Position numbers and translations under genes: made by a program. From assembly GCA_016182905.1 (NCBI GenBank), contig JACPFR010000001.1:1-63591 (forward strand): a stretch of DNA of 63,591 nt, read 5' to 3'. This stretch comes from Elusimicrobiota bacterium. GTDB taxonomy: Bacteria > Elusimicrobiota > Elusimicrobia > UBA1565 > UBA9628. This document shows, piece after piece, positions 2,445 to 5,554 of this stretch. The notes under the pieces were generated by a model. That model searched no databases, was not told the DNA's origin, and worked only from the letters and a program-made list of their open reading frames with translations. The first letter of the stretch is position 1. Every line of letters starts with the position of its first letter.

Positions 2445-4400
2445 ATGACCGGCGCCGCGGCCGTCGTCGGCGTGCTGTCCTCGGGGGTCGCGGCCGCCGC
2501 GCTCTGGTGGTGGTTCTCGTTCCGCAAGGTCCTGCCCCTCGAGCGCGAGGCGCGCGCGCTGCGCGCCGAGCTCGAGGACCTGCGCCGGTTCGCCGTCGAG
2601 GCGCTCGACCTCGACGCCGCCGTGCGCCGGCCGGGGCACGCCCTCGAGGAGGCGGCCAGCCGCGTGCTCGGCGCCCTGCACCGGCGTCAGCCCGAGCTCA
2701 GCCTCGCCGCCTTCGCGCGGCGCCCGGACGGCAGCGCGGCGCTCCTCGCGCACCGCGGCGGTCCGTGGGCGCGGCTCGAGCTTTCCTCGTTCCGCTTCGA
2801 CGCCGGGCTGCTCTCCCGCGCGGCCGCGTCCGGGAGCTCCTCGTGGAGCCTCGGCGACGCCGGGGGCGAGGCGGACGCCCTGACCCGGGGTCTCGCCCAG
2901 CAAGGATACAGCTCGGCGGCCGCCGGCGGCTGGACCGACGAGCGCGGCGCGGGCGTGGTACTCGCGGTCCGCTCCGGCCCGGGGGACGACGGCGAGACCC
3001 TGACGTCCCGGCTCGAGCTCGCGGCCGCGGCCCTGCGCTCGGCCGCGGCGCTCGCCGCGGGCCTGTCGGACCTCTCCAGCTCCCGGGAGAAGCTCGAGGG
3101 AGGGCTGTCGGCCGCGATGGAGGAGCTCACCGCGGCCCAGGACCGCCTGATCAAAAAATCAAAGGAAATCAAGACTTTGCACGACGTGGCCGGGGCGCTC
3201 AGCTCGCGCGCGGCGCAGGCGCCCTCGACCTTGGCGGCGATCGTCTCCATCGTGGCGCGCTCCCTCGAGGCGGACCTCGTCGCGTTCCTGATCCTCGACG
3301 AGGCCACCGGCGAGCTCGTGACGCAGTCCGGCGCCTACGGCTTGGAAGGGGAGGAGATGCTGTACCGCCTGGCGCTGACCGACGAGCGCTCTTCTTCCGT
3401 GCGGGTCTTCAAGACGCGTCGGCCGTTCATGACCGGGGACGCCCAGAACGACCCCCAGGTCAACGCCCATTACACCAAGATGTGGAGCATCCACTCGCTG
3501 ATGGTCGTGCCCCTCGTTTTGGAAGACCGGTGCATCGGAGTCATGCGCGTCGGGAGCAAGCGCCGCGACGCGTTCTCCGACGAGCAGATCGCCCTGGTGT
3601 CGGTCATCGCGGAGGAGGCGGCGATCATCGTGGAGACCGCCATTTTGAACCGGAGATTGGCCAAGACGGCGGAACAATTGGCCACCCTCAATCGTATGAA
3701 GGATGAGTTCGTCTCGACCGTCAGCCACGAGTTCAAGACTCCCTTGACCACGATCTCGGGATTCCTGACCGTGATGCTCGAGGGCGACACGGGACCGCTC
3801 AACGCACAACAGATGAAATTCCTCTCCATCGCGAAGGCCGCGTCGAAAAGGCTGTCGGGGCTCGTCTCCGACCTGCTCGACCTGTCGCGCCTGGAGGGCG
3901 GGGCGAAGATGGAGCTGGGGCCCTTCGACCTCGGGCGGCTGGTGCTCGAGTCGGTCGAGAACCACCAGCCCTCGGCCGCCGAGGCGAGCAAGACGCTCTC
4001 CGCCGAGGCCCCGGGCGTGCTGCCCAAGGCCCTCGGCGACGAGCGCTGGATGCAGCTCGTGCTCGACAACCTCGTCTCCAACGCGATCAAGTTCACCATG
4101 CCCGGCGGCCGGGTGCGCGTGCGCATCCAGGACAAGGGGGAGTTCGTGATGGTGTCCGTCTCCGACGACGGCATCGGTATTCCTCCGGAAGACCGCGAGA
4201 AGGTATTCGAGCGCTTCTACCGCGCCGGCAACCGCTCCCAGGTCAACGCGCCCGGCACGGGGCTGGGCCTCGCCATCGCCCGCGAGGTCGTCGACAAGCA
4301 CGGCGGCAAGATCTGGCTCGAGTCGGAGCTCGGCAAGGGCACCACCTTCCACTTCGTCGTCCCCGCGGCCGGCCGCGAGCGGCAGGAAGCGCAGAATTGA
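2445..4400 (+). CDS. Membrane-anchored GAF-domain sensor histidine kinase
   Basis: 651 aa. A single hydrophobic segment at residues ~5-27 anchors it in the inner membrane. A poorly conserved region (30-200) is followed by a coiled coil (~205-243), a GAF-type sensor domain (~244-405), then HisKA with the phospho-acceptor His428 in SHEFKTP, and a HATPase domain with N box (LVLDNLVSNAIKF), G1 (SDDGIGIPPED), F box (FERFYRAG) and G2 (GTGLGLAIA). All catalytic boxes are intact. The ATG at 2445 has a GGAGG Shine-Dalgarno sequence at 2435-2439. No response-regulator gene is visible nearby, so it is an orphan kinase in this window. It probably phosphorylates a remote receiver in response to a cytoplasmic ligand of the GAF domain; the ligand cannot be read from sequence. 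Confidence 0.93.
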   Translation: MTGAAAVVGVLSSGVAAAALWWWFSFRKVLPLEREARALRAELEDLRRFAVEALDLDAAVRRPGHALEEAASRVLGALHRRQPELSLAAFARRPDGSAALLAHRGGPWARLELSSFRFDAGLLSRAAASGSSSWSLGDAGGEADALTRGLAQQGYSSAAAGGWTDERGAGVVLAVRSGPGDDGETLTSRLELAAAALRSAAALAAGLSDLSSSREKLEGGLSAAMEELTAAQDRLIKKSKEIKTLHDVAGALSSRAAQAPSTLAAIVSIVARSLEADLVAFLILDEATGELVTQSGAYGLEGEEMLYRLALTDERSSSVRVFKTRRPFMTGDAQNDPQVNAHYTKMWSIHSLMVVPLVLEDRCIGVMRVGSKRRDAFSDEQIALVSVIAEEAAIIVETAILNRRLAKTAEQLATLNRMKDEFVSTVSHEFKTPLTTISGFLTVMLEGDTGPLNAQQMKFLSIAKAASKRLSGLVSDLLDLSRLEGGAKMELGPFDLGRLVLESVENHQPSAAEASKTLSAEAPGVLPKALGDERWMQLVLDNLVSNAIKFTMPGGRVRVRIQDKGEFVMVSVSDDGIGIPPEDREKVFERFYRAGNRSQVNAPGTGLGLAIAREVVDKHGGKIWLESELGKGTTFHFVVPAAGRERQEAQN

Positions 4401-5554
4401 ACGGCAACGAACGAATGAACCACAAAGACACCAAGACACGAAGAACGGAAGGGAGGGTCAACGTCGACGTTGACCTTCGTTCCGTTCGTTCTTGGTGTCT
4501 TGGTGTCTTTGTGGTCATTCCGTTCGTTTCCGGGTGCTCCTTCGGGCGGCTGAAGCCGGGGCTCACGAAGGAGGGCGCGGCCGTCGCCGTGTCCGCGCCG
4601 ACCGAGTCGGACGCGCGGCGGCTCGCGGTGGACGGCGCTCTCGAGCTGTTCCTGGCGCCCGGCTCCTCGGCCTCGGCGAGGATCGCGGAGGATTTCGGCG
4701 GCCGCGCGGCCGATTTCACCGGGCGCGCGCGCTTCAAGAAGGGGAAGGGCGTCGTCGAGCTCCGCTTCGCCAAGATGCTCCTCGCCCTGGACAAGGAAGG
4801 CCTTCTGCGCCCGGCGGGCTTCCCGTCGCAGGAGCCGCGCGTGCTGCTGCTCGTGTCCGAGCCGCAGGGGATACTCGACCTCGGCGTCGGGCCGGCGGCC
4901 GACGCCCTGCGCCGCGGCCTGTCGGCCTACGGCATGACGGCCATCGACGGCCGCGACCAGCTGAACAAATTCCCGGCCAAGGGCAAGGATCCCGCGGCGC
5001 TCGCCGCCGGCGCGTCGCGTCTCGGCGCGGAATGGATGGTCGTCGCCGCGGCCTCGGCGAGCGCGGAGCTCGATCCCGCCACCCTCACCTGGCGCGGCCG
5101 CGCGACCCTCGTCGCCGACCAATACGAGGTCAAGGACGCCGCGCCCGTCGGCCAGACGCAGTCCGACGCGTCGGTACTCGACACCTCGTCGGCCGCCGCC
5201 CGCGGCAAGGCCCTGGATCAGGCCGGGGAGGACGCGGCCTCCAAGGTCGCGGCCGAGATCACGCGCCGCCGGAGCGGCCGCTCGGAGGGCGCCGTCTTCG
5301 TCGTCGGCGGCTCCGGCCTCGACAGCCTGAAGCCCCTGCTCGCCGCTGTGCGCGGCGTGGAGGGCGTGGAGGGCGCGTATCTGGGCGTCTGGCGCGGCGA
5401 GGAGCAGAGCGTCGTCCTGCGCGTGTTCATGGCCGGGCTCAAGATCGACGGCCTGGCGGCGCGGCTCCTGCGGCGCTACCCGTCGCTCACCTTGATGTCG
5501 GTGGAGCCCGAGGCCGGCAGGCTCGCCGTCGAGCTGCCCGGGAGGGACGAATGA
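4397..5554 (+). CDS. Putative lipoprotein of unknown function
   Basis: 385 aa from a TTG at 4397 that overlaps the kinase stop (TTGA) and has AGGAAG seven bases upstream; an ATG at 4415 is the alternative (379 aa). A hydrophobic stretch WCLGVFVVIPFVSGC ends in a lipobox (VSGC, Cys47 from the TTG), so export and lipidation are likely. The N-terminal region and most of the hydrophobic core are encoded by the imperfect palindrome at 4404-4530, a repeat of intergenic type. The mature part has mixed alpha/beta character, with RVLLLVSEPQGIL, an Ala-rich helical region and a C-terminal piece AVFVVGGSGLDSLKPLL. The pattern recalls the fold of CsgG/LpoB/FlgT-middle-like envelope lipoproteins, but I cannot assign a family. 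It lies between a sensor kinase and comM, ending in an ATGA overlap with comM. Confidence 0.75.
   Translation: MNGNERMNHKDTKTRRTEGRVNVDVDLRSVRSWCLGVFVVIPFVSGCSFGRLKPGLTKEGAAVAVSAPTESDARRLAVDGALELFLAPGSSASARIAEDFGGRAADFTGRARFKKGKGVVELRFAKMLLALDKEGLLRPAGFPSQEPRVLLLVSEPQGILDLGVGPAADALRRGLSAYGMTAIDGRDQLNKFPAKGKDPAALAAGASRLGAEWMVVAAASASAELDPATLTWRGRATLVADQYEVKDAAPVGQTQSDASVLDTSSAAARGKALDQAGEDAASKVAAEITRRRSGRSEGAVFVVGGSGLDSLKPLLAAVRGVEGVEGAYLGVWRGEEQSVVLRVFMAGLKIDGLAARLLRRYPSLTLMSVEPEAGRLAVELPGRDE
4404..4530. repeat. Imperfect long palindrome of the CACAAAGACACCAAGACACG type
   Basis: Two arms read toward each other around a centre near 4465 (ACGTCGACGT). The left arm carries CACAAAGACACCAAGA (4421-4436) and the right arm its exact reverse complement TCTTGGTGTCTTTGTG (about 4498-4513), with imperfect pairing on both sides. 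Short repeats of this 'cacaaagacac.aagacacgaag' kind are familiar from intergenic regions of many environmental bacterial genomes. Here the copy is unusual because it lies across the start of a coding region and supplies the signal-peptide codons of the lipoprotein gene. Confidence 0.8.

What the first reader, a model, noticed from the sequence alone, without database searches (positions are those of the whole stretch)
4397..4545. Lipoprotein signal peptide encoded by an intergenic-type palindrome
The hydrophobic core before the lipobox Cys is translated from the right arm of a repeat whose left arm encodes the polar N-terminus. The repeat seems to have landed across the gene start and been taken up as a signal peptide, a rare case of a palindromic repeat becoming a functional protein segment.
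Basis: partly seen in the sequence, partly recalled or inferred. Interest (0 to 1): 0.55.

Follow-up and report, generated by a model that had tools for sequence, protein, structure and literature searches.

The report
Mobile palindromes reused as signal peptides
In one bacterial genome, copies of a mobile DNA palindrome appear to have repeatedly replaced the export signal of secreted proteins, because one half of the palindrome tends to encode a charged stretch and the other half a greasy stretch, which is what a signal peptide looks like.

Summary
A 131-nt imperfect palindrome (4402-4532; two 51-nt arms, 84% complementary) lies in frame between the TTG start of a predicted lipoprotein (4397-5554) and its lipobox Cys (4535-4537). 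The A-rich arm encodes the polar n-region, the T-rich arm the hydrophobic core. All 13 same-genus orthologous loci whose start I could read lack the palindrome and have ordinary, unrelated lipoprotein signals. The palindrome therefore replaced the native core.

It is not isolated. At least 36 places in this genome carry the repeat. Four more copies (C6, C18, C53, C5), and more weakly a single-arm remnant (C49), form the signal peptide of other exported proteins whose relatives have native signals. Four further cases (three in a congener, one in an unrelated contig) lack an orthologue comparison. All three frames of the T arm are used, and dN/dS of the mature proteins is low.

The likely reason is the genetic code: an inverted repeat with an A-rich first arm tends to read polar, then hydrophobic, on both strands. 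Mobile-element signal peptides are already in print (Delihas 2007, Yersinia RU-2), so this is a multi-case variant of a known kind. Export is untested. A GxxExxY nuclease gene lies between the arms in 3 of 3 near-full-length cases in the genus.

The parts
2445..4400 (+). upstream sensor histidine kinase-like ORF; its TGA overlaps the TTG start of the lipoprotein (TTGA)
   Evidence: ORF list; kinase motifs (HEFKTPL, GTGLGLAI) recognised by eye from memory, not searched
4397..4399 (+). TTG start codon, same place as in G007 (AATTGAAC); AGGAAG 7 nt upstream
4402..4532 (.). KDTK-type palindromic repeat, one of at least 36 places in the genome
4402..4452 (+). A-rich arm; encodes the polar, positively charged n-region (NERMNHKDTKTRRTEG)
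4453..4478 (.). inner 13-nt hairpin (GAGGGTCAACGTC/GACGTTGACCTTC)
   Evidence: in G003 the site of another copy (L078) carries an inner hairpin without the KDTK arms
4482..4532 (+). T-rich arm; encodes the hydrophobic core (WCLGVFVVIPFV)
4526..4537 (+). lipobox V-S-G-C; the Cys codon 4535-4537 lies just past the repeat and is native sequence
4397..5554 (+). predicted lipoprotein of 385 aa, no Pfam (E<=0.01) or NCBIfam (E<=0.1) match; orthologues in 14 other genomes of the genus

Best explanation
A dispersed, mobile palindromic repeat of the 'CCAC-AAAG-ACAC-AAG' type landed at the tightly overlapped stop/start of the kinase and lipoprotein genes, and about 12 codons of native hydrophobic core were lost. 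The protein now uses the repeat as its signal peptide: native TTG start, A-rich arm as n-region, T-rich arm as h-region, native lipobox. It works because complementing an A-rich codon string (NAN codons: K, N, D, H and their neighbours T, R) gives NTN-rich codons (F, V, L) and C. A palindrome with the A-rich arm first therefore tends to read polar, then hydrophobic, on both strands and in most frames without a stop. The repeat core ATGAACCAC/TTGAACCAC also carries an overlapping stop and start codon, so it can couple translation to an upstream gene. Shown: sequence, frame, replacement relative to orthologues, recurrence, conserved mature protein. Inferred: that the peptide directs export and lipidation in vivo, and that insertion came before loss of the native core.
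For: (1) 13 of 13 readable same-genus orthologous loci lack the arms and have native lipoprotein signals. (2) The same outcome elsewhere in the genome. C6 TPR protein: none of 14 orthologous loci has arms, native signal visible in 13. C18: arms in G000 and G009, none in the other 14 loci checked. C53 TPR: of 18 loci, arms in G000 and, T arm only, in G006. C5 DsbH-like thioredoxin: none in G007 and G008. C49 OmpH-like: T arm alone, shared with G003. (3) Further cases without orthologue comparison: G015 S41 protease, G015 TPR protein and G015 lipoprotein ...FVSLCLCGLPFLSAC, pro-kumamolisin protease in viral-contig locus L318. (4) Maximal 11-residue hydrophobicity 2.33-2.91 in the 11 repeat-derived signals, 2.40-3.13 in 10 native ones (in C5 and the G015 TPR protein the best stretch is partly outside the T arm). 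(5) T-arm frames at or above 1.5: 41 of 99, against 1.05% of 18160 window segments; A-arm frames at or below -2: 64 of 99, against 10.2%. (6) dN/dS of the mature part, G000 against closest orthologue: 0.126 (C1), 0.137 (C53), 0.148 (C18), 0.182 (C6), 0.216 (C49), 0.239 (C5). On the G000 branch of C1 7 N to 23 S, on the G003 branch 8.7 N to 27.3 S.
Against: The n-region is 33 residues long (3 in the native signals of this gene), unusual for a lipoprotein signal. The stem of about -108 kcal/mol begins 2 nt after the start codon and should slow translation. No signal-peptide predictor, expression or secretome data were available. The dN/dS covers the whole branch and the C1 insertion cannot be dated: it is known from one genome. 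In C6 (outgroup G016) the G000 branch has 11 N to 17 S against 7.5 to 24.5 for G003, and in C5 10 to 16 against 12.5 to 25.5 for G007, so slight relaxation there is not excluded. 18 of 99 T-arm frames and 24 of 99 A-arm frames hold a stop, and single T-arm frames fall to -0.79, so the repeat is not a signal in every frame. In C49 the relatives' own signals (G001 VVVSLCLCASS, G007 ILCLCAVL) already resemble the T arm. At one site (L085/L193) the element inserted cleanly with TA ends, so the loss of native core in C1 and C6 is not explained by the insertion alone.
Confidence: 0.84

Rival explanations
1. The insertion destroyed the signal peptide; the gene is a fresh pseudogene or makes a mislocalised protein, and the hydrophobic reading of the T arm is a by-product of its composition.
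For: T arms of the genome average 1.25-1.75 on the hydropathy scale in the three frames whether or not they lie in a gene; the C1 insertion is seen in one genome only; very stable hairpin over the start.
Against: The frame is open through 131 nt and meets the native lipobox in register. The same in-register outcome is found in at least five genes of one genome, each time ending at a cleavage site like that of the relatives. C18 is occupied in both G000 and G009, dS 0.28 and dN/dS 0.148 between them. No clear excess of nonsynonymous change on the G000 branch of C1.
Confidence: 0.1
2. The repeat is only an untranslated regulatory hairpin and translation starts after it.
For: By a rough ORF scan most of the 36 places are intergenic, some directly before apparent native starts with their own signal peptides (L084, L104).
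Against: In C1 the only in-frame ATG/GTG/TTG before the Cys are TTG 4397, ATG 4415 and GTG 4511, the last leaving 8 residues. A start past the repeat would remove the lipobox Cys that all 13 readable orthologues keep.
Confidence: 0.04
3. Assembly artefact: a short repeat joined two unrelated contig pieces of a fragmented assembly.
For: The genome is a 63-contig assembly with many copies of the repeat.
Against: Both flanks of each case are neighbours in relatives: kinase-lipoprotein in G003, G007 and G009, TPR-TPR for C6, RdgB-TPR for C53 and the same upstream sequence for C18 and C5.
Confidence: 0.02
4. The signal peptide changed not by insertion and later deletion but by ectopic recombination or gene conversion with a repeat copy, swapping the hydrophobic core directly (a variant of the best explanation, not exclusive of it).
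For: C49 (G000 and G003) has the T arm alone in a signal peptide of 25 residues, the same length as in G001; G006 carries a T-arm segment in the C53 family without an A arm; G000 and G009 share the C18 site with different arm subtypes.
Against: C1, C6, C18, C53 and C5 carry the complete two-armed element; clean insertion is seen at L085.
Confidence: 0.3

Closest known systems
Yersinia RU-2/YPAL repeat forming part of the predicted signal peptide of YPO1552 (Delihas 2007, PMC2759123 and PMC2229807; passages read)
   Different: Here several conserved proteins of one genome are affected, orthologues in the same genus show the native signal that was replaced, one case is a lipoprotein signal, and the dyad itself accounts for n-region and h-region.
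Rickettsia palindromic elements (RPE), as summarised in PMC10969869 and PMC2229807 (passages read)
   Same: Palindromic elements of roughly 100-150 bp inserted in frame in unrelated protein genes.
   Different: RPEs are described as insertions in protein genes without an export role in the passages I read; here the translated insertions that I found are N-terminal and read as export signals (C-terminal tails were not surveyed). No sequence comparison with RPEs was made.
Coding palindromes of nematomorph mitochondrial genes (PMC6649704; abstract and outline seen)
   Same: Inverted repeats inside translated genes.
   Different: There both arms encode conserved protein regions; here one arm encodes a charged, the other a hydrophobic segment of a pre-sequence.
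GxxExxY family (TIGR04256, Pfam PF13366 PDDEXK_3)
   Same: Its gene lies between an A arm and a T arm of this same repeat in 3 of 3 near-full-length genes of the genus.
   Different: The two papers that name it in my search gave me no function (one listing, one passage); a role in moving the repeat is my inference.

Membership tests
bacterial lipoprotein (type II) signal peptide | hydrophobic core followed by lipobox [LVI][ASTVI][GAS]C (consensus recalled) | tested here: met
   CLGVFVVIPF-VSGC; core 2.84
bacterial lipoprotein (type II) signal peptide | short basic n-region | tested here: not met
   n-region basic (+3) but 33 residues long against 3 in G003, G007 and G009; so an atypical signal, as in C6, C18, C53 and C5
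bacterial lipoprotein (type II) signal peptide | orthologues are lipoproteins | tested here: met
   13 of 13 readable loci have a signal ending in a Cys at this place
bacterial lipoprotein (type II) signal peptide | export and lipidation | not testable with these tools
   needs a bench test
dispersed palindromic repeat / MITE-like element | many copies with terminal inverted repeats | tested here: met
   36 places in G000, both arms in 33
dispersed palindromic repeat / MITE-like element | filled and empty sites among relatives | tested here: met
   C1, C6, C18, C5; L079, L081, L085, L086
dispersed palindromic repeat / MITE-like element | target-site duplication | tested here: inconclusive
   TA/TA ends at L085 compared with G003; the other sites compared are not clean
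dispersed palindromic repeat / MITE-like element | autonomous partner with the same ends | tested here: inconclusive
   GxxExxY gene between arms in G000, G013 and G015; mobilisation not shown
Rickettsia palindromic elements | RPE sequence family | not tested
   no RPE sequence was compared
REP elements with RAYT transposase | TnpA-REP gene linked to the repeat | not tested
   not searched

The most novel reading that the evidence does not exclude
The KDTK palindrome is a portable export cassette. In one mobile unit of about 130 nt it carries a stop/start overlap (ATGA or TTGA), a basic n-region and a hydrophobic core that works in several frames and both orientations. By the symmetry of the code it turns an insertion at a gene start into a candidate signal peptide, and it spreads with a GxxExxY PD-(D/E)XK nuclease element. 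Organisms rich in such repeats would have exchanged signal peptides on a genome-wide scale.
Probability: 0.4. Interest if true: 0.8.

Novelty: new variant of a known kind. Interest (0 to 1): 0.62.

Why it matters
Signal peptides evolve fast, yet their origin is seldom visible. Here the native signal, the donor repeat and the replaced product can be read side by side, in several genes. It also gives a simple rule: an inverted repeat with an A-rich first arm is a likely ready-made signal peptide on either strand. That rule can be tested in any genome rich in such repeats, and it warns annotators not to clip such 'repeat-like' N-termini.

Tried and rejected
Target deletion as a fixed property of the element: rejected, because L085 compared with G003 is a clean insertion. 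Rfam: six matches below threshold (five to miRNA models, one to a gyrA cis-regulatory model) at about 0.2-0.4 of their gathering scores, taken as chance matches to a long hairpin. Terminator or sigma-70 promoter at the site: none found by consensus scan. Repeat in PLSDB plasmids by blastn: no match. Fusion candidates in those loci: 23 ORFs from 70 arm pairs, of which I accept one (L318); in the others I see no convincing cleavage site or they look like chance frames, a judgement by eye. Exact arm pattern in the phylum: 3 of 198 genomes drawn, so the repeat is sporadic there; G009, G013 and G015 were not in that draw. L084, L079, L077, L085, L096, L103 and L104 appear to have native starts after the repeat and were not counted; C-terminal tails read from the repeat were not surveyed. 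Paper searches for prior reports; no listing named this repeat or a GxxExxY link. Passages seen in PMC8934634 (GxxExxY named once beside a reverse transcriptase) and PMC5771137 did not bear on it. Subscription papers are not held, so absence is not proof.

Limits: the C5 native start in G007 and G008 has no canonical codon that I could see in frame, so its length is unsure. In C53 the relatives' frame runs on from RdgB, so 'native signal' there may be an internal segment. C49 is the weakest case. The 36 places are my grouping of the matches, which scored only 40 candidates each. The background has another base composition than the arms, so it shows what the arms encode, not selection. GxxExxY count: near-full-length in 3 of 19 genus genomes, all among the 4 genomes with 15 or more repeat matches (Fisher p 0.004); few and related genomes, and the cut at 15 was chosen after seeing the counts.
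Full report
What is there. The window is from an Elusimicrobiota genome by its relatives (the one named record found, an Elusimicrobiota MAG, has a 90% identical protein). A kinase-like ORF ends at 4400 in a TTGA that overlaps the TTG start (4397) of a 385-aa ORF. Positions 4402-4532 form an imperfect palindrome, arms 4402-4452 and 4482-4532, 84% complementary, with an inner hairpin. The folding energy is far beyond chance (z -10.6). Read from the TTG, the left arm gives NERMNHKDTKTRRTEG and the right arm RSWCLGVFVVIPFVS; the Cys codon of the lipobox starts 3 nt after the arm's last base.

Orthologues. The mature part (4541-5551) was searched in 58 genomes, the own one included: 33 have a match. 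Fourteen other genomes of the genus have one. In 13 of these the 5' end could be read, 94% to 33% identical or partial; in G016 the contig ends inside the gene. All 13 have a short basic-hydrophobic signal ending in a lipobox Cys and no arm of the repeat. G007 even has the same TTG start (AATTGAAC). So the palindrome took the place of about 12 codons of native core, while start and lipobox stayed.

The gene is alive by sequence. dN/dS of G000 against G003 is 0.126; the G000 branch shows 7 nonsynonymous to 23 synonymous changes, the G003 branch 8.7 to 27.3 (outgroup G009). This limits relaxation but does not date the insertion.

Copies. 71 and 72 matches in the genome group into 36 places, a lower bound since 40 candidates were scored in each call; I fetched all 36 with flanks (C1 is L020). 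33 have both arms, the A-rich arm first and the T-rich arm second. By a rough ORF scan most are intergenic.

More signal peptides from the same repeat. A scan of frames through the copies and the orthologue searches give the following. C6, TPR protein: MGNWNDDGSNHKDTKTRRT...FVLCAFVSLWFILSVQPARA|GG; G003 MRTSLLALLLALAPVSAHA|GG; the native ATGCGAACT is kept. C18: (M)NHKDTKTRRT...SSCLCAFVVLSFPSPASA|G; G003 MRPGLASVLALLLAAPASA|G; G009 has a repeat of another arm subtype at the same site. C53, TPR protein...NHKDTKTRRT...VLCVFVSLWFILAVAVLPSSVRA|EK; G003 ...AILASALLLVCAAPAFA|EK. C5, Thioredox_DsbH (PF03190): (M)NHKVTKTRRT...LRVFVSLWFVLSVSLSRAAEA; G007 and G008 without arms. C49, OmpH-like (PF03938): MKSTRLFVSLCLCGSFVLSSVPARA, T arm only, shared by G000 and G003; weaker, because relatives' own signals there are similar. 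In C18 and C5 the repeat also brings the TTG start, in a TTGA overlap. In G015 three more proteins (S41 protease; a TPR protein and a lipoprotein), and in an unrelated viral-contig record a pro-kumamolisin protease, have such signals; for these four no orthologue comparison was made. That is ten gene families in all.

Why it works. T arms of the genome translated in three frames give 41 of 99 segments at or above 1.5 on the Kyte-Doolittle scale, against 1.05% of window segments; A arms give 64 of 99 at or below -2, against 10.2%. Stops interrupt 18 of 99 T frames and 24 of 99 A frames. The background has another base composition, so this shows what the arm does, not selection. Three frames of the T arm are in use: FVSLWF (C6, C53, C5), CLCAFVV/CLGVFVV (C18, C1), SLCLCG or SLCLRG (C49, G015). 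The cause is the code: the complement of NAN is NTN. Because an inverted repeat reads the same way on both strands, orientation does not matter. Core hydrophobicity is like that of native signals (2.33-2.91 against 2.40-3.13), but the pre-sequence is mostly longer, 25-57 residues to the site against 16-28.

How it got there. Empty sites: one clean insertion with TA at both ends (L085 against G003), others with some change at the junction (6 of 18 prepared copies were queried, in three relatives). The native core loss was therefore either a second step after the repeat had made it redundant, or a direct swap by recombination; C49 and the G006 member of the C53 family, which hold a T arm alone, speak for the second route in those genes.

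Possible mover. PF13366 (GxxExxY) was found in 5 of 58 genomes; near-full-length genes are in G000, G013 and G015 only, and each lies between an A arm and a T arm; the pieces in G018 and G043 have no arms (TIGR04256 E 4.9e-42 for the G013 gene). Among 19 genus genomes these three are among the four with 15 or more repeat matches (p 0.004); G009, with 15 matches and 70% completeness, shows none. A Gemmatirosa plasmid GxxExxY gene is flanked by palindromes of a different sequence; a Sphingomonas one is not; five other plasmid hits were not examined. I recalled an association of GxxExxY with such repeats before seeing it; the tests above are what the calls show.

Known or new. Delihas (2007) reported a Yersinia repeat that forms part of the predicted signal peptide of YPO1552, and noted unrelated signals in other genera (passages). 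RPEs are the classic in-frame palindromes (passages). So the kind is known. New here, as far as my searches go, are the number of cases in one genome, the native-versus-replaced comparison in close relatives, a lipoprotein case, and the dyad-and-code explanation.

Noticed in passing
L240 (G013:C188) 1421-1926; L241 (G000:C10) 1438-1886; L239 (G015:C15) 1432-1942: GxxExxY (PF13366/TIGR04256) nuclease gene lies between the two arms of the same palindrome in all three near-full-length cases of the genus; a candidate autonomous element for the repeat.
   Followed up: partly
L267 about 600-675 and 1185-1260 (Gemmatirosa plasmid NZ_CP007129.1): A GxxExxY gene flanked on both sides by palindromes of a different family (CCGCAGAGGACGCAGAGG arms).
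   Followed up: partly
L205 (G003:C135) against L078: At the orthologous site G003 has the inner hairpin of the repeat without the KDTK arms, as if palindromes were nested or had lost the outer arms symmetrically.
   Followed up: no
L129 against L130: G000 and G009 share the C18 site but with different arm subtypes (NHKDTKTRR against NHRDTETRR), suggesting arm conversion or repeated use of one site.
   Followed up: no
L149-L166 (C53 family): In several relatives the RdgB/HAM1-like frame runs on without stop into the TPR protein; in G000 RdgB ends and the TPR protein has its own start and a repeat-derived signal. RdgB recognised by eye.
   Followed up: partly
L318 4422-6722: Pro-kumamolisin protease in a viral-contig record with a T-arm signal peptide (SVTLCLCVLVVNSAFA).
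   Followed up: partly
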